Assembly: GCA_026399025.1 (NCBI GenBank)
Contig: JAPLRU010000031.1
Span: 1 to 39,980 of the forward strand
Length of the DNA: 39,980 nt
Direction: 5' to 3'
DNA from: Methylobacter sp.
GTDB taxonomy: Bacteria; Pseudomonadota; Gammaproteobacteria; Methylococcales; Methylomonadaceae
Below the pieces are notes generated by a model. That model ran no database searches and was not told the DNA's origin. It saw only the letters and a list, made by a program, of their open reading frames with translations. A program made the position numbers and the translations under genes. The number at the start of each line of letters is the position of its first letter. The stretch's first letter is position 1. Of the stretch, positions 1 through 27,205 are shown piece after piece.

Positions 1-90
1 CAGGACCGGCGTTTCCGGCATCCCGAGGCTTCGGAGTGCCGGAAACGCCCACCCTGGCTGTCGCCGGGCGGGCTTATTCCGGCCTACGTC
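1..90. repeat. GC-rich palindromic module, inverted copy of 26994-27083
   Basis: This 90-nt segment is the reverse complement of 26994-27083 with a single difference that I can see. It contains a perfect 13-bp inverted repeat (8-20 against 37-49) that can fold into a strong hairpin. It probably continues beyond the left edge of the window. No coding potential is evident. In the 26.9-kb copy the same module lies inside a larger element with GTTCCCACGCTCC ends, so here it is probably part of a nested or rearranged element. Confidence 0.85.
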
Positions 91-341
91 CGTCTTTATA
101 CACAAGTCTGTGAGGTTACCCAAAGCTCGTCATTCCGGCAGGGATGCCGGACCCGTTAGAGCGCGAAGCGAAACCAGTCACAGCGATGTGAAGCTGTCGT
201 TTGGCACTTAGCTTAAATTTAACCCCTAAGAAGCCATAAGTTGCCATCCATGGCACTGGATACCGGCATCCCTGCCGGTATGACGACTCTTGGACGAAGT
301 TGTGTATAAAGACGAGCGCCGGAGCGTGGGAACGATGTCGC
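91..341. repeat. MITE-like composite repeat element A (partial)
   Basis: The right end (about 299-337) has the TTGTGTATAAAGACGAGCGC string followed by CGGAGCGTGGGAAC, the same terminus as the elements at 13.2 and 26.9 kb. The left part starts with CGTCTTTATACACAAG, the matching inverted end, but without the outer GTTCCCACGCTCC. That outer end seems to have been replaced by the 1-90 module. The interior has facing CATTCCGGCAGGGATGCCGG and CCGGCATCCCTGCCGG blocks, related to the interior of the element at 13.2 kb. There is no open frame and no transposase. The rest of the gap up to 413 holds nothing I recognise. Confidence 0.75.
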
Positions 342-412: not shown

Positions 413-2131
413 CTAGACCAACAAATACATCAACACCAGATTCGTGAACAGCAATAGTGCCGACAAACCTTTCCAGAACAATAACGGATTGCGTTGAATT
501 AAAGGTATTGCCTCTTCGGCGCTCAAAAACTTGGGGTTGGGCGTGGACAAGTCATACAAAAATTCCGATAAATCGTCATAACGAAATTGCGGCGTTAGTG
601 CGGTGGCTTTTTTTAAGGCTCCGTCAATCCAGATAGGCACCATCGCGTTGTGATGAAAACTGGGCACGTAATGCAATTTCGCCAGATTCATTTTATTAGG
701 TTTTTCAGGCATATCCTGGCCGAAGGGCAGGGCGCTGTTAAGCATCTCGTAAGTGATAACGCCCAAGGAAAACAGGTCGGATTTTACCGTGCCGCGCTGG
801 CCTAAATGATATTCCGGCGCGGTGTAATTCAAGGTGCCGAGCACATTCTCGCTATGATCCAAGGGCGTTATTTCCGCGATACCGGCGATTTTCACCGAGC
901 CGAAATCGATGATTTTCACCACGCCGTTTTTATCCAACATGATGTTTTCCGGTTTTAAATCCTGATGCAGCATTTCCATGCGATGAAATGCGCGCAGTCC
1001 TTTGGCGATTTGCTCGACGATTATGCGGGTTTCTTTAATGTCCGGTTTCGGGTTGGCGCTGATCCATTGTCTGAGGGTCGGGCCTTCGATAAACTCGGTG
1101 ACGTAATAAATGCAGCTTTTTTCCCGATTGGGATTCAGAATTTTTAAGACGTTTTCATGACGAATGCGTTTTCCGGCCCATTCTTCATGTAGGAAATGTT
1201 CGATGTAATGAGTGTCGTCGTCATAAAGGATGGATGGGGTTTTTAAAATAACCAAAGTGTCGGTTCGGGTATCGAAGGCGCGGTAAATCTGGGTGCGCTT
1301 ACTGGCATGGAGTTCCGCCTCAATCCGGTAGCCGTCAATCGTCATACCCGGTTCCAGCGGCGGCGGGAAGGGCAGGTTGGTGTGGCGTCGAATAATCTCG
1401 TCTTCGTTAGCGTCGGGCAGTTCATCGATTCTGACCAGTTGGCAAGTCAGATTGTCGTCGCTGTGATTGTCTGTGGCTTGCTGGGTGATGGTTTCGGCAA
1501 TCCGGGTTAAATCCGCACCGTTTTGGACGAGTTTTTTCAGGTTTTTTTCATCGATAAAATCGTGCACCCCGTCGGTCGTCATCAAAAACAGGTCGCCTAT
1601 TTCCAAAGGCAGCGCATGGTAATCGACTTCCAGATGCGGCTCTATGCCCATAGCCCGATTCAGATAATTTTTTTCTTTAACCCAAATGCGATGATCGCGG
1701 GTGATTTGCTCGAAATTACCTTGACGCAAACGGTAAATGCGCGAGTCGCCGATATGAAAAATATGCGCGGTGGTCGATTTAAGCACAATGATGCTCAGCG
1801 TACTGACCATGCCTTTGGTCGATTCATAGCGGCTTTGGCCCTGACTATATAACCAGGAATTGGTCGCTGAAAGAATTTTCTGGCCGGCATGTTTGACCGA
1901 CCAGGAGTCGGGAGTGCTGTAATAATCGCTTAAAAAACTGATCACGCAGCAATGGCTGGCTTGCTTACCGGCGTCACTGCCGCTCATGCCGTCGGCAATC
2001 GCAACGGCGATGCCTTTATGAATCAGTTGCGGGCCTTCCGGTATTAACGAACCGAAAAAATCTTCATTATCCGGCTTGATGCCTTTATCGCCGGCAGAGC
2101 CGATGCTGATTTTTAGTGTGGGTTTGGGCAT
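413..2131 (-). CDS. Bifunctional PP2C-type phosphatase / Ser-Thr protein kinase, membrane-anchored
   Basis: A 572-residue fusion. Residues about 1-240 are a PP2C phosphatase with the metal-binding aspartates in DNEDFF, ADGMSGSDAG and TTDGVHDFID. Residues about 265-530 are a Hanks-type kinase with the VILKTP lysine, the catalytic loop HQDLKPENIM (HQD in place of HRD) and the DFG motif in IIDFGSVKI. A hydrophobic segment at about 548-570 is probably a C-terminal membrane anchor, leaving both catalytic domains in the cytoplasm. The gene lies directly downstream of the nitrate transporter on the same strand, the order seen in the nasA-kinase-nirB clusters of Pseudomonas, so a role in controlling nitrate assimilation is likely but inferred. 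No good ribosome binding site precedes the ATG. A 7-bp tandem repeat lies immediately upstream instead, so translation may depend on the upstream gene. Any nirB would lie to the left of the window. Confidence 0.9.
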   Translation of the reverse strand: MPKPTLKISIGSAGDKGIKPDNEDFFGSLIPEGPQLIHKGIAVAIADGMSGSDAGKQASHCCVISFLSDYYSTPDSWSVKHAGQKILSATNSWLYSQGQSRYESTKGMVSTLSIIVLKSTTAHIFHIGDSRIYRLRQGNFEQITRDHRIWVKEKNYLNRAMGIEPHLEVDYHALPLEIGDLFLMTTDGVHDFIDEKNLKKLVQNGADLTRIAETITQQATDNHSDDNLTCQLVRIDELPDANEDEIIRRHTNLPFPPPLEPGMTIDGYRIEAELHASKRTQIYRAFDTRTDTLVILKTPSILYDDDTHYIEHFLHEEWAGKRIRHENVLKILNPNREKSCIYYVTEFIEGPTLRQWISANPKPDIKETRIIVEQIAKGLRAFHRMEMLHQDLKPENIMLDKNGVVKIIDFGSVKIAGIAEITPLDHSENVLGTLNYTAPEYHLGQRGTVKSDLFSLGVITYEMLNSALPFGQDMPEKPNKMNLAKLHYVPSFHHNAMVPIWIDGALKKATALTPQFRYDDLSEFLYDLSTPNPKFLSAEEAIPLIQRNPLLFWKGLSALLLFTNLVLMYLLV

Positions 2132-10189: not shown

Positions 10190-10438
10190 GGATATTCAGG
10201 CAAAGCACAAGGGATGGGTATTTATAATTTAAAGCTTCGTCGTCAACGAGTGCGGAAAAGCGCATGTAAAGCGCTTATAATCCGGGCTTCCGAGCTTTCA
10301 TATTATACGCACAGATAGTTATACTTATACTTCCAAATCCGCTCCTTGCTCGGAAAAGAGAGTAAAGTCGATCAAACAAGCCCCGCTGCCTGATGCGGTC
10401 CGGCAGAACATTTAACCCAATGAACAGGATTTAAATTA

Positions 10439-13183
10439 ATGACCGTAAACAGCAATAACGGCTCTATCGCCACAGAAGTTATGTACCAGTGCCTTGTTCA
10501 AATCATTAATAATCACGGCAACGCGTTAACCGCAACGGAAATCAAAGACCGCGAACAGCACTATCTTAAACGTCTGATGAAAGAGTGCGCAGGGCTCGAA
10601 TGGTTAGACCAAGTTGAACAGATAGATGCGGACAGCACCCCAATGACCTTGAATGCTGTTTATACCGCGTTGCTAACCACTACCCCAAAAAACCACAAAG
10701 AACAAACCCTCAGGGAAAAGCTACGATCATTCAGCGCGGTGGAAATGCTTAATCGGGAACAGCGGCTGGTTATCACCGGCGCGCCCGGCAGCGGCAAAAC
10801 GGCCTTGGTTAACTTTATCGCGCTGTGCATGGCGGGCGAATTACTGCAAGACGCTTTATGCAATCTGCGCTTGTTAACCGAGCCTTTGCCCGTTGCCAAC
10901 GATCAAGAGAAAAACCAACCACAAGACTGGCAACATCCGGCCTTGATACCGCTACGGGTGGTGTTGCGGGATTTTGCCGGTTCGGAGCATTTCCCCCAAA
11001 CAGGACAGCAAGGCACGGCGTTGCAGCTTTATAACTTTATTAAAGCCGACTTGAGCAGCAAAATGTGTACGGAGTATGTCGATATTTTGGAGCAGCGTTT
11101 GCGGCGCGGCGAAGTCTTGGTATTGTTTGACGGGCTCGATGAGGTGTCGCAGGCGGGCGAACGCAGAGTACATCTCAAACAGTGCATCGAAGATTTTTGT
11201 AAATCCTATGGCGGCAACCGGTTTCTGGTTACCGTGCGCCCTTATGCTTATGAACAAAAAGACTGGAAAATACGCGATTTTAGCCAAACCGGCCTAGCCA
11301 ACTTCAGTCGCGGTCAAATCCGTTTATTTATCGAACGCTGGTATCAGTGTCGGATTGAAATTAAAGACAGCGAAAGGCAACACCGCGCCGAAAAACTTAA
11401 AACCGTGATTTTACAGAACAGCGCTTTATACGAGCTGGCGGAACGTCCGTTATTGCTGACCTTAATGGCCTTTTTGCACAGTAATCGCCATGACTTGCCC
11501 GAACGCCGGGCCGATTTATACAAGCATTTATTGGATTTGTTAATTCAAAAATGGGAAAAAGCCCGCTTTAAAGTTGACGATGTCGAGGCGGCAAAAAAGT
11601 GCGAACAGCACAGTTTGGCGGAGTTTTTACAGGTCGGTCCCGATGCGATCCGCCAAGTGTTGGAGCGGCTGGCCTATAATGCCCATGCCAATCAGACCGG
11701 TAACGCTAGCGGAACCGCTGATATTGCCGCCCAAAACCTGAGCCATGAGTTGGTTAAACTGGCGCGTAATAATCAGCAACACGACGTCAGCGTAGCCAAA
11801 ATTCATGATTATTTGCGCGACCGGGTCGGCATCTTATATCAACGCGGCGGTGACGGCGACAATGCGGTTTATACCTTTCCGCACCGCAGTTTTCAGGAAT
11901 ATCTGGCCGCCGCTTATTTTCATCGGGAAGAAAAGGATTTATTTACACAATATCAGGATTGCGAAGACTGGCAGGCCTTGGCCGCTCACTTAGCCATCAC
12001 CGACCCGGATCGTTGGCGTGAAGTCGTCATTTTGGCAGGCGGCATTGAAGCGCAGACCAAGCCCGGCCCTATCTGGGATTTATTGAATGCCTTAGTGCCG
12101 GAGCCGCTAACCGGCGACTTCTTGGAGTTGAAATCGGCCTGGGCTTTGCGTCTGTCCGCGCAAATTCTTGCCGAAAGCCTTAAGTTTATCGATTTAAGCC
12201 CAAAGCATGAGCGCATTAAACAACGCATTTGTTCATCATTGCCGCAGGTTTTAACAAGCTCGACACTGGCCGCCCCGGAGCGCGTTGCCGCAGGCCGTTA
12301 TTTAGCCAAAATCGGCGATCCGCGCAGCGAGGTGTTAAACGTTGATGACATGCTGTTTTGCTTGATAGCCAAAGGCGAGTTTTTCTTGGGCAGCACCGAT
12401 GACGATAGTTTGGCCCGTGACGATGAAAAACATAACGCGGGCTTGCAAAGCCTGGATTATGTTTACGCGCTGGGCAAGTATCCGGTCACCGTGGCGCAGT
12501 TTGCCCAGTTTGAGCAAGAATCCGGCTTTCAAGTAGGAGACCATGACTGTTTAGACGGTATGGCGAATGCCCCCGTGGTTTATGTAAGTTGGGATGAGGC
12601 TATGGCGTTTTGCGCGTGGCTGACCGAACGTTGGACAAATGTTTTGCCTAAAGGCTGGCGCGTGACTTTACCCACTGAACGCGAATGGGAAAAAGCCGCG
12701 CGCGGCGGCTTAACCATTCCACTGGCAACCCAAGCATTCACCGCCGACGGCTTAGTGGAAAACTTAACCTCGGAAGCGATTAAAGATAACGGCAATCCGC
12801 AGCGACTCTATCCTTGGGGCGACGACCTCGATAACGAAAAATTAAATTTCAACATGAACATAGGCGCGGTTTCGGCGGTAGGCTGTTACCCTTTGGGCGC
12901 TAGTCCTTATGGCTGTGAGGAGATGAGCGGCAATGTCTGGGAATGGGCGCGCAGCACTTATGATAAGAGCTATCCCGCTAGTGAGCATCTCTGGTTACAG
13001 CGTGATAATCCAGACGACAACAAGCAGTCGCGTGTGTTGCGCGGCGGCGGCTTCTACGACATTCAGAACTTCGTGCGTTGTGCCGCCCGTTTCGACGTCC
13101 ACCCGAACAGCCGTGGCTACGACATCGGCTTTCGGGTAGTGCTGTCCCCATTACCTCCGAACTCTGTATCTTCTGGCCTCTGA
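10439..13183 (+). CDS. NACHT NTPase with C-terminal FGE/C-type-lectin-fold domain, first copy
   Basis: A 914-residue STAND-type ATPase. The NACHT domain has Walker A ITGAPGSGKT (about 112-121) and Walker B LVLFDGLDEV (about 227-236), followed by helical regions to about 600. Residues about 626-914 form an FGE-sulfatase (SUMF1) fold with LYPWGDD, GNVWEW, RVLRGGG and IGFRVV. The two catalytic cysteines of true formylglycine-generating enzymes are absent: the segment after RGGGF reads YDIQNFVRCAAR. So it is probably a ligand-binding C-type-lectin variant, not an enzyme. Those residues coincide with the putative DGR variable region. The N-terminus has NNGSIATE, related to a motif in the next two proteins. 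A ribosome binding site (AGGA) precedes the ATG. The likely role is an NLR-like sensor in immunity or self/non-self recognition (inference). Confidence 0.9.
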   Translation: MTVNSNNGSIATEVMYQCLVQIINNHGNALTATEIKDREQHYLKRLMKECAGLEWLDQVEQIDADSTPMTLNAVYTALLTTTPKNHKEQTLREKLRSFSAVEMLNREQRLVITGAPGSGKTALVNFIALCMAGELLQDALCNLRLLTEPLPVANDQEKNQPQDWQHPALIPLRVVLRDFAGSEHFPQTGQQGTALQLYNFIKADLSSKMCTEYVDILEQRLRRGEVLVLFDGLDEVSQAGERRVHLKQCIEDFCKSYGGNRFLVTVRPYAYEQKDWKIRDFSQTGLANFSRGQIRLFIERWYQCRIEIKDSERQHRAEKLKTVILQNSALYELAERPLLLTLMAFLHSNRHDLPERRADLYKHLLDLLIQKWEKARFKVDDVEAAKKCEQHSLAEFLQVGPDAIRQVLERLAYNAHANQTGNASGTADIAAQNLSHELVKLARNNQQHDVSVAKIHDYLRDRVGILYQRGGDGDNAVYTFPHRSFQEYLAAAYFHREEKDLFTQYQDCEDWQALAAHLAITDPDRWREVVILAGGIEAQTKPGPIWDLLNALVPEPLTGDFLELKSAWALRLSAQILAESLKFIDLSPKHERIKQRICSSLPQVLTSSTLAAPERVAAGRYLAKIGDPRSEVLNVDDMLFCLIAKGEFFLGSTDDDSLARDDEKHNAGLQSLDYVYALGKYPVTVAQFAQFEQESGFQVGDHDCLDGMANAPVVYVSWDEAMAFCAWLTERWTNVLPKGWRVTLPTEREWEKAARGGLTIPLATQAFTADGLVENLTSEAIKDNGNPQRLYPWGDDLDNEKLNFNMNIGAVSAVGCYPLGASPYGCEEMSGNVWEWARSTYDKSYPASEHLWLQRDNPDDNKQSRVLRGGGFYDIQNFVRCAARFDVHPNSRGYDIGFRVVLSPLPPNSVSSGL
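13025..13157 (+). other. Putative DGR variable region VR1
   Basis: The core 13055-13126 (24 codons, residues 873-896 of the first NACHT protein) is flanked by 30 nt on the left and 33 nt on the right that are identical to the flanks of 16842-16913 in the second NACHT gene. Within the core the two copies differ at 11 nt. Eight of these have A in one copy, and eight of nine changed codons change the amino acid. The encoded pattern ending HPNSRGYDIGFRVV resembles the variable ends of DGR targets of the FGE type. The conserved right flank would hold the initiation-of-mutagenic-homing site. Confidence 0.7.
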
Positions 13184-13194
13184 ATCTCTGATTT

Positions 13195-13470
13195 GCTATC
13201 GTTCCCACGCTCCGGCGCTCATCTTTATACACAAGTGCTTGCGGGCACCGTCATTCTGGCAGGGATGCCAGAATCCAGGCACAGGGATGTGAAAGTTCGG
13301 AGATACCCGATGTTTCTAAACAACGCGCAAGGTTCGAAAGTTACCGTCCATGGCGCTGGATCCCGGCTTCCCTGCCGGGATGACGACTCTGCACCAACTT
13401 GTGTATAAAGATGAGCGCCGGAGCGTGGGAACTATTCGAGTTGCTGGGGTATTTATTGCGAGCTGCCTAA
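13195..13470. mobile_element. MITE-like element B, 36-bp perfect inverted repeat
   Basis: Inner arms 13201-13236 and 13397-13432 are perfectly complementary over 36 bp, beginning GTTCCCACGCTCCGGCGCTC. Between them lie CATTCTGGCAGGGATGCCAG and the facing CCCGGCTTCCCTGCCGGG block. On the right the element continues to 13470 with TATTTATTGCGAGCTGCCTA, the outer end also seen at 27.2 and 33.2 kb. The left outer end is missing. No transposase frame is present, so it would be a non-autonomous element. It ends exactly where the reverse transcriptase remnant begins. Confidence 0.85.
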
Positions 13471-13857
13471 GACGTTGCTATGGGAATGGAAGCAACAAAC
13501 TGAGGCTTATTTAGCCAAGCTAAGATTACGGTTTCATTCGGGAACGCATCCACGCCCTGTTACCGAAGGTTTTAGGTTTTTCCTAACAAGCGACGTTTAA
13601 AAAGACGCAAAGGCATTCAATATCAGCGCCGCTTAAAACACCTGATTTCACAAGTTGAACGTGGGGAGCTTCTAAAACAATCCTTGTTGGATTCAATCAT
13701 GGCGTGGAATAATCATGCCGGCTACGGTAATACAGTCGGTTTACCCGATGAAATTGCCGCTCTAGCTCGTAAACGCTATCAAAAAATTTTAAATCGACAC
13801 AACAAAAACCACCGGAGAAAACTATGTACGAATTACAACCCGCAGTCAGCGGTTTAA
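13471..13857 (+). pseudogene. Remnant of a reverse transcriptase C-terminus, DGR-like
   Basis: Conceptual translation across one disruption gives LLWEWKQQTEAYLAKLRLRF, then RPVTEGFRF, then (after a shift and small deletion near 13577) FPNKRRLKRRKG, LISQVERGELL and SIMAWNNHAGYGNTVGL. The order 'P-V-x-x-G-F-x-F-L-G-F, K-R-R, W-x-x-H-A, N-T' is what I recall of the thumb and C-terminal region of DGR-type reverse transcriptases. The palm domain with YxDD is absent: upstream the sequence changes abruptly into the repeat element ending at 13470. The remnant overlaps the start of the following gene by 34 nt. Assignment rests on recalled family patterns, not on a search. Confidence 0.65.
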
Positions 13858-14177
13858 TGGATTTATTGATTCAAGGCGGCTCGGATGCGGCTGTAGAACT
13901 GTCCAAAAATGCCGTGCTGAAAGGCGCTACGGTTTTATCGAAATTGTGGCGGGATATTTTCAGCAAACAGCCCCGAGCTTATCCACTGGCCGATGATGTA
14001 GCGAAACAGCCTGGCAATGAAGAATTGAAAAATCAGTTGCAAGCACTGTTGCAACAAACGCTTAGCGAATATCCCGAGTTATTGCAGAACACTAATACAT
14101 CGGGGGATGTCACTGCCGATAACGGTTCAATCGCCGTAGGGCAAAGTATTCATTCAAGCCAAACCATCCATAAATAA
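13824..14177 (+). CDS. Small helical protein with C-terminal N-G-S-I-A-V-G-Q motif
   Basis: A 117-residue protein of unknown function, preceded by a ribosome binding site (GGAGA). Residues 1-95 are predicted helical: an amphipathic N-terminal stretch with small residues (GGSDAAVELSKNAVLKGA), then EELKNQLQALLQQTLSEYPELLQ. The last 20 residues are polar and glycine-rich, with NGSIAVGQ at 100-107. Nearly the same octapeptide (NGGIAVGQ) opens the NACHT protein encoded 72 bp downstream. A small effector with a motif at its C-terminus next to an NLR with the motif at its N-terminus is the arrangement described for bacterial amyloid signalling sequences. It might therefore be the cell-death or membrane effector of the downstream receptor, which is inference. 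It is not Avd-like as far as I can judge. Confidence 0.75.
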   Translation: MYELQPAVSGLMDLLIQGGSDAAVELSKNAVLKGATVLSKLWRDIFSKQPRAYPLADDVAKQPGNEELKNQLQALLQQTLSEYPELLQNTNTSGDVTADNGSIAVGQSIHSSQTIHK

Positions 14178-14185
14178 ATCGAACC

Positions 14186-14230
14186 GGAGTGCGGGCTTTG
14201 CCCGCTATCGCCAAGCAAAGTCCGCACTCC
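14186..14230. repeat. REP-like hairpin between the small protein and the second NACHT gene
   Basis: Arms GGAGTGCGGGCTTTGC (14186-14201) and GCAAAGTCCGCACTCC (14215-14230) pair with one mismatch around a 13-nt loop. A related sequence occurs at 17019-17062, just after the second NACHT gene. It could act as an attenuator or mRNA stabiliser, but the recurrence points to a dispersed repeat. It has no T-run, so it is not a standard terminator. Confidence 0.8.
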
Positions 14231-14249
14231 AAAAATATGAGTACATCTT

Positions 14250-16970
14250 ATGAACTGGCTCGATTGGCTAAACCGAAAATTATCTAAACCTCAGCCACAA
14301 GCCGACGTTGCCAACGTAAGCGCCCAAAACGGCGGTATTGCAGTGGGCCAGGCTAACGGCAGTACTATTATTGTTTATAACCAGTCCGTACCCGATCAGG
14401 TTATCAAACTACAGGCAAGAGGGCTTAAGTTGCCGACCGAACGCGCGCAAAACATAACGCGGAAATTTTTAGAAGATATTCAAACCTATTACCGTTATTT
14501 ACCGTTAAAAGGCATGGGCAATAATGGCGAACTGCGTTTGCAGTTTCCGTTGGTCTCGCTGTTTATTCCGCTCAATGCCCGGTTAACCTTGCCCAAAGCC
14601 GATACCTTGCCGGATGGTTTGCGCTTGGCCGGGCGAAAGTTAAGCGAGGAAGATGACGAGCAATGGGGCGGGCGTTTGGATCATGCCCGTCCGGTGTTGG
14701 AGCTGATTATCCAACACCCGGTGTTAGTCATCCTCGGCGACCCAGGTTCAGGCAAAAGTACGGTGCTGCGGTTTTTGGCGTTCTTATTGGCGACCGGACA
14801 AGGCCGCAGCTTACAGCTGGAGGGTTTCCTGCCGCTATTGCTGCCGCTGGCCGCTTATTCCGAACGACTCAGCAAACAGGAGGATTTAAGCCTGCGGCGT
14901 TTTGCATTGGAATATTTTCAAGCGCGGATGGATTTGCACGATTTGGCTGAATTACTGGAAACCCGTCTGGAACAAGGCAAGGTCTTAATCCTGTTGGACG
15001 GCCTGGATGAAGTTAAAGCCGTGCATTTGCGCAATACCGTCGTGGATAGGGTGCAGCAATTTCTCTGCGGGCATATTAAACACGGCAACCGGGTGATTAT
15101 GACCAGCCGCATTATCGGTTATCAGGAAGTCCGCCCGCCGGAAATTGAAAACTTGCGCGAATGTACGCTGTTAGATTTCGATGAGGATGAAATCGCCGAG
15201 TTTATTGGCCGCTGGACGCAAACTATCGAAGCCGCCTGTTATGGGCAACAGGCGGTTATTCGCTATGAAGCGCAACGGGAAGCTAATGAATTGATAAGCG
15301 CTATCGAACACAATCCGGGCATACGCAAACTGGCGGCAACGCCGTTATTGTTGACCATGCTGGTCATCCAAAAGCGTCAAGGCGTCAGTCTGCCCAAGCA
15401 TCGCGTGATGTTGTATGAGCAATACATACAAAGCTTATTACGCGACTGGCTGCTGGCGCGCAGTTTACATAACAGTCCGGCGGATTTGCCGGATGATTTG
15501 ATGTTGCGCCGGGTGTTGGAGCCGCTGGCCTGGTGGCTGCAAAGCACGGTCCCCGGCAAAGGACTGGTCAATGAAGCGGATTTGCTTGCTTGGCTCGGCG
15601 ATTTTTATAAAGACGCGGAAAATCCTGGGCAGAAAGTCCGTGGCTGTATTAAAGACGTGCGCGAATATTCCGGTTTGCTGATCGACCGGGGCGGCGGAAG
15701 CTTCGGCTTTATGCACTTGACCTTTATGGAATACTTGGCGGCGGTATCGCTGGCCGACCGTGTGCAAAACGGATTAGACGCGGTTTTAGCGTGCATGGTA
15801 GAACATGCGGACGAGGCGGAATGGCAGGAAACCTTGTTGTTGTCTATCAGCTATTTGGGCATTAAGCAAAAGTTCGCTCCCCTGACGACCGAATTATTGC
15901 GGAAACTTTTGGCGCACACCGCGAAATCACCCGGAAGCCATCATGAACTGGTTGCCGCCGCTTTGGCTGACATGGGGCCGATAGGGGTAACCGCGGAAGG
16001 CTGGCAAAGCTTGCGGAAAAGTCTGGTGGATGAAGGCTTACGCAGTTTCGTTATTCCGGCGCGAAAACGGGCGAATATAGGCCGGTGGCTGGCTGAAATG
16101 GGCGACCCGCGTAGCGAGGTGTTAACGGTTGACGACATGCTGTTTTGCTGGGTGCCGAGAGGCGAGTTTTTCCTGGGCAGCACCGATAGCGATAGTTTGG
16201 CCAGTGGCGATGAAAAACATAACGCGGGCTTGCAAAACCTGGATTATGTTTACGCGCTGAGCAAGTATCCGGTCACCGTGGCGCAGTTTACCCGGTTTGT
16301 AAATGACTCGGGTTTTCAGGCAGGAGACAAGGGCTGCTTGGACGGGCCGACGAACCGGCCCGTGGTTGATGTAAGCTGGGATGAAGCGATGGCTTTTTGT
16401 GTTTGGCTGACTGAGCGTTGGAATACTGTTTTGCCGCAAGGCTGGCGTGTAACTTTACCCACCGAACGCGAATGGGAAAAAGCCGCGCGCGGCGGTTTAA
16501 AAATTCCACTGACAACCCAAGCATTCACTGCCGCCGACTTAGCGGAAAATTTAAGCTCGGAAGCCGTTAAAGATAACGACAGCCCGCAGCGACTCTATCC
16601 CTGGGGCAATGATCTCGATAACGAAAAATTAAACTTTGACATGAACATAGGCGCGGTTTCAGCAGTCGGTTGTTATCCCTTGGGCGGCAGCCCTTATGGC
16701 TGCGAGGAGATGGGCGGCAATGTCTGGGAATGGACGCGCAGTGTTTATGCAAAAAACTATCCCGATAACGGCAGCCTCTGGTTACAGCGTGATAATTCGG
16801 ATGACAGCGAACAGTCGCGTGTGTTGCGCGGCGGCGGCTTCAACGACCTTCAGAGCCGCGTGCGTTGCGCCGCCCGTTACGACGTCCACCCGAACGACCG
16901 TGACTACGACCTCGGCTTTCGGGTAGTGCTGTCCCCATTACCTCTGGACTCTGAAGCCTCTGATCTCTGA
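14250..16970 (+). CDS. NACHT NTPase with C-terminal FGE/C-type-lectin-fold domain, second copy
   Basis: A 906-residue STAND-type ATPase. The N-terminus carries NGGIAVGQ (27-34), matching the motif of the small protein upstream. Walker A is VILGDPGSGKST (about 159-170) and Walker B is VLILLDGLDEV (about 245-255). The NACHT and helical regions differ strongly from those of the first copy. From about residue 617 the FGE-fold domain is nearly the same as in the first protein at both protein and DNA level. As there, the catalytic cysteine pair of formylglycine-generating enzymes is missing, replaced by NDLQSRVRCAARY. A typical ribosome binding site is not evident before the ATG. The likely role is a ligand-sensing NLR-like receptor paired with the small protein; the ligand and output are unknown. 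Confidence 0.9.
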   Translation: MNWLDWLNRKLSKPQPQADVANVSAQNGGIAVGQANGSTIIVYNQSVPDQVIKLQARGLKLPTERAQNITRKFLEDIQTYYRYLPLKGMGNNGELRLQFPLVSLFIPLNARLTLPKADTLPDGLRLAGRKLSEEDDEQWGGRLDHARPVLELIIQHPVLVILGDPGSGKSTVLRFLAFLLATGQGRSLQLEGFLPLLLPLAAYSERLSKQEDLSLRRFALEYFQARMDLHDLAELLETRLEQGKVLILLDGLDEVKAVHLRNTVVDRVQQFLCGHIKHGNRVIMTSRIIGYQEVRPPEIENLRECTLLDFDEDEIAEFIGRWTQTIEAACYGQQAVIRYEAQREANELISAIEHNPGIRKLAATPLLLTMLVIQKRQGVSLPKHRVMLYEQYIQSLLRDWLLARSLHNSPADLPDDLMLRRVLEPLAWWLQSTVPGKGLVNEADLLAWLGDFYKDAENPGQKVRGCIKDVREYSGLLIDRGGGSFGFMHLTFMEYLAAVSLADRVQNGLDAVLACMVEHADEAEWQETLLLSISYLGIKQKFAPLTTELLRKLLAHTAKSPGSHHELVAAALADMGPIGVTAEGWQSLRKSLVDEGLRSFVIPARKRANIGRWLAEMGDPRSEVLTVDDMLFCWVPRGEFFLGSTDSDSLASGDEKHNAGLQNLDYVYALSKYPVTVAQFTRFVNDSGFQAGDKGCLDGPTNRPVVDVSWDEAMAFCVWLTERWNTVLPQGWRVTLPTEREWEKAARGGLKIPLTTQAFTAADLAENLSSEAVKDNDSPQRLYPWGNDLDNEKLNFDMNIGAVSAVGCYPLGGSPYGCEEMGGNVWEWTRSVYAKNYPDNGSLWLQRDNSDDSEQSRVLRGGGFNDLQSRVRCAARYDVHPNDRDYDLGFRVVLSPLPLDSEASDL
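16812..16946 (+). other. Putative DGR variable region VR2
   Basis: The core 16842-16913 (residues 865-888 of the second NACHT protein) corresponds codon for codon to 13055-13126. Differences from VR1 include TAC/AAC, ATT/CTT, AAC/AGC, TTC/CGC, TTC/TAC, AGC/GAC, GGC/GAC and ATC/CTC, all at first or second codon positions. The single other difference, TGT/TGC, is silent. All but that one are explained if a template carried A at the changed positions. No template repeat was seen in the window. Confidence 0.7.
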
Positions 16971-17018
16971 ATCTCTGAAAAAATGAGTTTCACTGGTTTT
17001 GATAGGGTGCAAGAATCG

Positions 17019-17062
17019 GGAGTGCAAGCTTTGCTTGCCTGTGCAGACGAAGCCTGCACTCC
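17019..17062. repeat. REP-like hairpin downstream of the second NACHT gene
   Basis: Ends GGAGTGCAAGCTT and AAGCCTGCACTCC face each other with one mismatch, and a second small hairpin lies inside (CAAGCTTTGCTTG). Related to the hairpin at 14186-14230. It lies between convergent genes and may help end transcription from either side, though no clear U-tract follows. Confidence 0.7.
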
Positions 17063-17134
17063 GCGATGCTGAAACAGGGTAGAGGCCTATGCCCGGTATT
17101 TCCTGGCAAGAGCGTGGCGGCGACTTTCCTTACC

Positions 17135-26900: not shown

Positions 26901-27205
26901 TAAGGCAACTCGCAATAAATACCCCACAGACCCGAATAGTTCCCACGCTCCAGCGCTCGTCTTTATACACAAGTCTGTTCAAGACGGGACGTAGACGTAG
27001 GCCGGAATAAGCCCGCCCGGCGATAGCCAGGGTGGGCGTTTCCGGCACTCCGAAGCCTCGGGATGCCGGAAACGCCGGTCCTGCGCTAAAGCTCGGACCG
27101 GCTTATTCCGGCCTACATCGCTACATCGAGATGTGTATAACGATTAGCGCCGGCCGGAGCGTGGGAGCGATAGCTGTGAGGGATCTATTATTGCGAGTTA
27201 CCTAA
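26901..27205. mobile_element. MITE-like element C
   Basis: The outer ends are TAAGGCAACTCGCAATAAAT (26901-26920) and the inverted ATTATTGCGAGTTACCTAA ending at 27205. Inside are GTTCCCACGCTCCAGCGCTC (26939 on) and GGAGCGTGGGAGC near 27168. The interior holds the 90-nt module 26994-27083, nearly identical to the inverse of 1-90. No open frame or transposase is present. The inner arms are more degraded than in element B. It lies between the peptidase and the GGDEF/EAL gene. Confidence 0.8.

What the first reader, a model, noticed from the sequence alone, without database searches (positions are those of the whole stretch)
13025..16946. Two variable regions of a diversity-generating retroelement in tandem NACHT-FGE genes
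The 72-nt cores 13055-13126 and 16842-16913 differ at 11 positions. Eight have A in one copy, two more (TTC against CGC) fit a template AAC codon, and only one is a silent T/C. Eight of nine changed codons change the amino acid, at first and second positions only. The cores are bracketed by 30 and 33 identical nucleotides. They sit exactly at the ligand-binding end of an FGE-type C-type-lectin fold, the place DGRs diversify. The combination with NACHT (NLR-like) domains suggests immune receptors with reverse-transcriptase-made variability.
Basis: partly seen in the sequence, partly recalled or inferred. Interest (0 to 1): 0.92.

Follow-up and report, generated by a model that had tools for sequence, protein, structure and literature searches.

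The report
Decayed hypermutation cassette in immune-like genes
Two neighbouring immune-receptor-like genes of a methane-oxidising bacterium carry the marks of a natural mutation machine at their sensing ends, but the machine itself is broken here: only the tail of its reverse transcriptase is left between them, beside a small repeated element.

Summary
13055-13126 and 16842-16913 differ at 11 sites in 9 codons (8 nonsynonymous), bracketed by 30 and 33 identical bases. They are most likely variable regions (VRs) of a diversity-generating retroelement (DGR), but the DGR is broken in this genome. Between the two NACHT-FGE genes, at 13469-13806, lies a remnant of a DGR reverse transcriptase (RT): only its C-terminal third, in two frames with a stop. 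A hairpin-forming, multicopy MITE-like repeat (13198-13435) stands where relatives have avd, template and the RT's 5' part. No template or intact DGR RT was found in the genome, nor avd (controls silent). Relatives in other phyla keep the cassette; in nine template-VR comparisons the template has A at 145 of 159 differences. The locus is an insertion between two genes adjacent in 21 of 21 genus-mates examined. DGR-diversified NACHT-lectin targets and MITE-degraded DGRs are published (PMC10907252), so this is a new, degenerate member of a known kind. A 22-residue motif shared by NACHT2 and the small protein encoded upstream hints at amyloid-type signalling.

The parts
10190..17134 (.). inserted island between a PHP-phosphatase gene and an ABC-exporter gene
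   Evidence: ABC and PHP genes are neighbours in 21 of 21 other genus genomes with an ABC match (19 within about 150 bp, 2 at about 1.0-1.3 kb); none of these loci matches the FGE, RT, avd or small-protein queries at E<=1e-3
10439..13183 (+). NACHT-FGE gene 1 (914 aa), DGR target
   Evidence: Pfam PF05729 and PF03781 over cut-off; NACHT part 50% identical to that of Methylococcales locus L030
13025..13157 (+). variable region 1 (core 13055-13126)
13198..13435 (.). MITE-like palindromic repeat in the place of template, avd and RT 5' part
   Evidence: 79 matches at E<=1e-5 in own genome, itself included; being a palindrome many places count on both strands, and 40 of 270 first-look candidates were scored; inverted arms; hairpin z=-12.7, 0 of 200 shuffles fold as well
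13469..13806 (+). remnant of a DGR reverse transcriptase: C-terminal third only, two pieces in two frames with a stop
   Evidence: tblastn combined E down to 4e-19; profile A2 positions 238-275 and 275-338 of 344, E 2.3e-7 and 6.3e-15; reversed-window control silent
13824..14177 (+). small helical protein (117 aa), possible effector; C-terminal motif at 14106-14171
   Evidence: no Pfam, NCBIfam or PADLOC match; motif shared with the next gene, 8 of 2000 shuffles reach the score; low-confidence helical model with unstructured C-terminus
14250..16970 (+). NACHT-FGE gene 2 (906 aa), DGR target; shared motif at 14313-14378
   Evidence: PF05729 and PF03781 over cut-off; FGE segment 85% identical in DNA to gene 1, NACHT parts only 27% identical in protein
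16812..16944 (+). variable region 2 (core 16842-16913)

Best explanation
This is a degenerate DGR locus. An island with two NACHT-FGE receptor genes, and between them (as in L042 and L048) avd, a template repeat and an RT, came into the genome between a PHP gene and an ABC-exporter gene. While active, the RT copied the template into cDNA with errors at adenines, and the copies replaced the last ~130 bp of both genes, giving each a different ligand-binding face on the same lectin scaffold. Later a MITE-like repeat came to occupy the middle, with loss of template, avd and the catalytic two thirds of the RT; the RT tail then decayed. The receptor genes stayed open. They now carry two frozen binding sites and probably work as ordinary NACHT sensors, with NACHT2 possibly switching on the small protein encoded next to it through a shared prion-like motif. 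Shown: the VR pattern, RT remnant, repeat, failure to find the machinery, relatives with the cassette, insertion. Inferred: past activity in this lineage, order of events, sensing, signalling.
For: RT remnant between the two genes. VR pattern as in systems with a template. Templates of relatives have A in 145 of 159 TR-VR differences and align without gaps to the window VRs. Order FGE gene - avd - template - RT in L036, L038, L040, L042, L044, L048, the RT cut to its C-terminal end in L036 and by the contig end in L044. The L048 avd is over the NCBIfam cut-off for DGR Avd; the four targets scanned are NACHT + FGE. MITE-like repeat beside the remnant. No other FGE domain, DGR RT, template or avd found in the genome. 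TvpA, a DGR variable protein, is among the structural and profile matches of the domain. Both receptor ORFs are open.
Against: No template is present, so A-specific mutation cannot be shown directly in this genome. The plain A count is not significant (p=0.21). 18 columns that are mostly A in relatives' templates are identical in the two window copies, 11 of them not A, so the lost template must have had fewer adenines or the copies share history. The assembly has 138 contigs; a missing DGR cannot be excluded. The avd search's built-in controls were silent. Fold matches are led by enzymes, TvpA ranks 42nd.
Confidence: 0.83

Rival explanations
1. The DGR is still active: an RT and template lie in an assembly gap, or in other cells of the population, and act in trans on these VRs.
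For: PMC10907252 (passages read) reports targets at incomplete loci still diversified, by trans activity or by cells with intact copies. Of the 11 core differences only one is silent and one more lies outside the majority-A columns, so little ordinary drift has built up in the VRs.
Against: Genome rated 100% complete; no DGR RT, avd or template found in 5.23 Mb. The genus-mate RT in G005 is only 48% identical to the L042 RT and stands beside other genes.
Confidence: 0.12
2. Ordinary tandem duplicates under diversifying selection and gene conversion, with no DGR involved.
For: A-in-one-copy is not enriched over the rest of the FGE segment (p=0.21), and another 44-codon stretch also lacks third-position changes.
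Against: DGR RT remnant between the genes; differences sit in template-A columns of relatives (p=0.016); the FGE pairs L046 and L070 look different.
Confidence: 0.03
3. The FGE domains are real formylglycine-generating or related enzymes and the differences reflect substrate specificity.
For: Fold and profile matches are mostly FGE, EgtB-like and related enzymes.
Against: Fusion to NACHT, location of differences at the VR and presence of DGR parts in relatives; catalytic residues were not examined here.
Confidence: 0.02

Closest known systems
Thiohalocapsa PB-PSB1 DGR loci and clade 5D DGRs (Dore et al. 2024, PMC10907252; abstract, first of three parts of Results, sections 12 and 18, and search passages read)
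   Same: Two tandem targets with central NACHT/STAND domain and C-terminal FGE-type lectin carrying the VR; degenerate loci where MITE-like repeats replaced RT or template; target N-terminal parts differ while lectin ends are related.
   Different: Methylococcales host (the words methanotroph and Methylo- do not occur in that paper's main text; its supplements were not seen); template, avd and RT core were not found anywhere in this genome; a small protein with a shared motif instead of a peptidase nearby.
NACHT-FGE DGR loci found here: L042 (Anammoxibacter), L048 (KSB1), L038 (unnamed bacterium)
   Same: NACHT-FGE targets in L042 and L048, FGE target in L038; same VR register; RT homologous to the remnant.
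   Different: They have avd, template and full-length RT.
TvpA, Treponema denticola DGR variable protein (2y3c)
   Same: FGE-type lectin fold with the VR at the C-terminal end (fold match; PMC6328139 passages).
   Different: Single-domain protein without NACHT.
NLR-associated amyloid signalling pairs (BASS/BELL; PMC7889193 and PMC8086366, passages read)
   Same: Short motif at the C-terminus of a small helical protein and at the N-terminus of the NLR encoded next to it.
   Different: Not tested against the published BASS profiles; no amyloid test.

Membership tests
Diversity-generating retroelement (functional) | DGR reverse transcriptase, intact | tested here: not met
   only the C-terminal third, frameshifted, at 13469-13806; the other two RTs of the genome are a group II intron RT (TIGR04416 over cut-off, GIIM) and one next to Cas1
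Diversity-generating retroelement (functional) | template repeat matching the VR except at adenines | tested here: not met
   none found in the own genome; the 13 minor matches are no better than the chance floor when A is tolerated (33 to 40 other mismatches in 111; floor in the rest of the window 35-36)
Diversity-generating retroelement (functional) | accessory protein Avd | tested here: inconclusive
   no match, but the 14 control genomes were silent as well and one search covers the window only
DGR target gene (variable protein) | VR at the C-terminal end of a C-type-lectin fold | tested here: met
   (model pLDDT 93)
DGR target gene (variable protein) | substitutions at codon positions 1-2 in template-A columns, constant flanks | tested here: met
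DGR target gene (variable protein) | adenine-specific change against own template | not testable with these tools
   template not found; shown only in relatives (145 of 159)
Clade 5D DGR RT (Dore 2024) | phylogenetic placement | not tested
   no RT tree was built; the remnant is short
NACHT/STAND NTPase | NACHT domain | tested here: met
   PF05729 over cut-off in both proteins
BASS amyloid signalling pair | shared motif at C-terminus of small helical protein and N-terminus of adjacent NLR | tested here: inconclusive
   shared motif score 47 with 8 of 2000 shuffles reaching it, best of 18 control ORFs 32; small protein helical at low confidence; no BASS profile available
MITE | short, multicopy, terminal inverted repeats, no gene | tested here: met
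   target-site duplication and parent transposon were not tested

The most novel reading that the evidence does not exclude
Receptors that outlive their mutator: after the DGR is destroyed by repeats, its targets are kept as fixed NACHT sensors, so that an adaptive-like system turns into an innate one. The two loci of this kind seen in the family (window and L030) have open receptor genes and only an RT tail. Here the frozen sensor may signal by amyloid templating to the small effector encoded beside it.
Probability: 0.3. Interest if true: 0.65.

Novelty: new member of a known kind. Interest (0 to 1): 0.45.

Why it matters
DGR-diversified NACHT proteins are proposed antigen sensors of bacteria. 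What happens to them when mutagenesis stops is an open question. A locus with two frozen binding sites, a dead RT and a candidate effector gives a testable case of fixed receptors derived from a hypermutation system, in a methanotroph family in which it is rare (2 of 237 family genomes hold this FGE type at E<=1e-30).

Tried and rejected
Living DGR in this genome: disfavoured. Help from the genus-mate DGR (G005): its RT is 48% identical to the L042 RT, stands beside other genes, and no template was seen in the 15 kb fetched. The same A-biased repeat scan of the G060, G071, G068, G016 and G020 stretches gave one pair, inside two FGE copies of G060 (8 differences, 7 with A in one copy), and none in the other four. 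Loose RT motif hits in L047, L052 and L071 were not confirmed by the RT profile. Viral contigs: no relative. Plasmids: 210 records with a match, 12 listed, best 33% identity. PADLOC: window proteins only weak matches, E 0.0005 or worse. NCBIfam: NACHT2 touches the antiphage protein EruA over 34 residues, far under cut-off. Plain A-enrichment test: not significant. TR-VR pooling left out L044 (partial template), the third L048 VR (register lost), the other L032 VR and L070 (no real template). In one search's column test L044 was kept although its first part does not align as a template. That the four truncated RTs (window, L030, L032, L036) all lack the 5' part was looked at as a possible pattern; four cases are too few. 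Literature: (listings); the last two gave no useful hit. No claim that this locus is absent from print is made.

Full report
What was claimed and what is there. The two copies are exactly as described. 13055-13126 and 16842-16913 differ at 11 positions in 9 codons; 8 codons change the residue; 10 of the 11 changes are at codon positions 1 and 2; the cores stand between 30 and 33 identical bases. Both genes are open, 914 and 906 aa, with NACHT and FGE-sulfatase domains over Pfam cut-offs. The FGE segments are 85% identical in DNA, while the NACHT parts are only 27% identical in protein: the sensing end was shared out between two different receptors.

Is it more than chance? Against the rest of the shared segment (116 differences in 716 nt, 61 at third positions), the core has 1 of 11 at third positions (Fisher p=0.009), and the whole VR has 1 third-position change in 44 codons against 61 in 238 (p=0.0002). 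The stronger test uses templates from relatives: 9 of the 10 differences at codon positions 1-2 fall in columns where at least 5 of 8 templates have A (27 of 48 columns, p=0.016). Against this, 18 mostly-A columns are identical in both copies, 11 of them not A. Of the seven other FGE pairs compared, those beside a real template (L042, L048) look like the window pair, and so do three without (L037, L043, L049); L046 and L070 do not.

Relatives. One scan of GTDB contigs with the FGE pair gave 56 loci. RTs with the motif GNLTSQ and YVDD or FVDD lie beside the FGE genes in L038, L040, L042, L044 and L048. A profile of these five, run over 14 kb of the window and the 56 loci, matched 9 of 57: the five it was built from (one cut by the contig end) and four that keep only the C-terminal part, namely the window, L030, L032 and L036; 48 had no match, many of them short contigs or remote FGE genes. 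Avd stands beside the template in six loci, L036 and the five; the L048 one is over the NCBIfam cut-off for DGR Avd. The four target genes scanned in L031, L042 and L048 match the FGE and NACHT profiles (NACHT is under the gathering score in one L042 gene). Templates align without gaps to the window VRs; in nine template-VR comparisons the template has A at 145 of 159 differences, with 17 of 17, 15 of 15, 15 of 15, 12 of 12, 18 of 18 and 19 of 19 in six of them; L031, L036 and L040 have 13 of 15, 17 of 24 and 19 of 24.

The missing machine. The RT queries hit the window itself at 13469-13806, between the two genes. The profile covers positions 238-275 and 275-338 of 344, in two frames with a stop; the reversed window gives nothing. 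The catalytic YVDD (at 227-230 of the first sequence of A2) and all before it are missing. In its place stands a palindrome, 13198-13435, with 79 matches in the genome at E<=1e-5, itself and second-strand matches included, and a very stable hairpin (z=-12.7). No template was found (the 13 minor matches are at the chance floor), nor avd (the controls were silent), nor an intact DGR RT. The other two RTs are a group II intron RT and one beside Cas1. The closest relative, L030 (it contains the G063 stretch L086, same family; titled Methylococcales), also has an open NACHT-FGE gene and an RT tail in pieces. The host is placed in Methylococcales by that family match; its species is not known to me.

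Origin. The ABC-exporter gene and the PHP gene that flank the island are neighbours in 21 of 21 genus-mates with an ABC match (19 within about 150 bp, 2 at about 1.0-1.3 kb), without FGE, RT, avd or small-protein matches there; G016 had no ABC match. More remote FGE genes do occur elsewhere in three genus-mates, G003, G016 and G020. In the family 2 of 237 genomes have this FGE type at E<=1e-30. The island was gained, or kept only here.

Structure. The FGE domain is predicted with pLDDT 93. Its best fold matches are formylglycine-generating and related enzymes; TvpA, a DGR variable protein, ranks 42nd and is found by the profile (E 2.6e-24). The VR is the last stretch of the domain, as described for TaqVP and TvpA (PMC6328139, passages).

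Signalling. The 117-aa protein encoded between the RT remnant and NACHT2 has no family match. Its C-terminus and the N-terminus of NACHT2 share a 22-residue stretch (score 47; 8 of 2000 shuffles reach it; best of 18 control ORFs 32), NACHT1 not convincingly (460 of 2000). L030's small protein and its NACHT N-terminus show no such shared motif (score 29). A single-sequence model is helical up to residue 92 and unstructured in the motif, at low confidence. Motif at the C-terminus of a small helical protein and at the N-terminus of the adjacent NLR is the layout described for BASS/BELL amyloid pairs (PMC7889193, passages). This is a lead, not a test.

Known or new. PMC10907252 (abstract, first of three parts of Results, sections 12 and 18, passages) describes NACHT/STAND targets with FGE-type lectins, two targets per locus, and loci where MITE-like repeats replaced RT or template. 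The window fits that picture. It is a new degenerate member, not a new system. The open point it adds is what the frozen receptors do.

Noticed in passing
window 238-336, 26930-26974: Further partial copies of the MITE-like repeat of 13198-13435.
   Followed up: no
L032, L036, L030 and window: All four truncated DGR RTs found keep only the C-terminal part; avd remnants in L037 and L039 keep only the N-terminal part, one in L032 the C-terminal end. Why the loss runs from avd/template into the RT is unexplained.
   Followed up: partly
L037, L043, L049: FGE pairs with VR-like differences (25, 21, 22 core differences, none in 39 flank bases) but no RT match in the fetched DNA: possible further orphan VRs; L049 is a short contig.
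   Followed up: partly
G005:C134 (L147) 34-1433: Genus-mate has an intact DGR-type RT with an upstream 115-aa weakly Avd-like protein, next to FtsW/penicillin-binding-like, FHA-like and PP2C-like genes (names by eye): a different DGR class.
   Followed up: partly
G000:C136 (L002): RT encoded directly after a Cas1 gene, with repeats downstream that look by eye like a CRISPR array.
   Followed up: no
window 413-2131 -: One protein with PP2C phosphatase and protein kinase domains.
   Followed up: no
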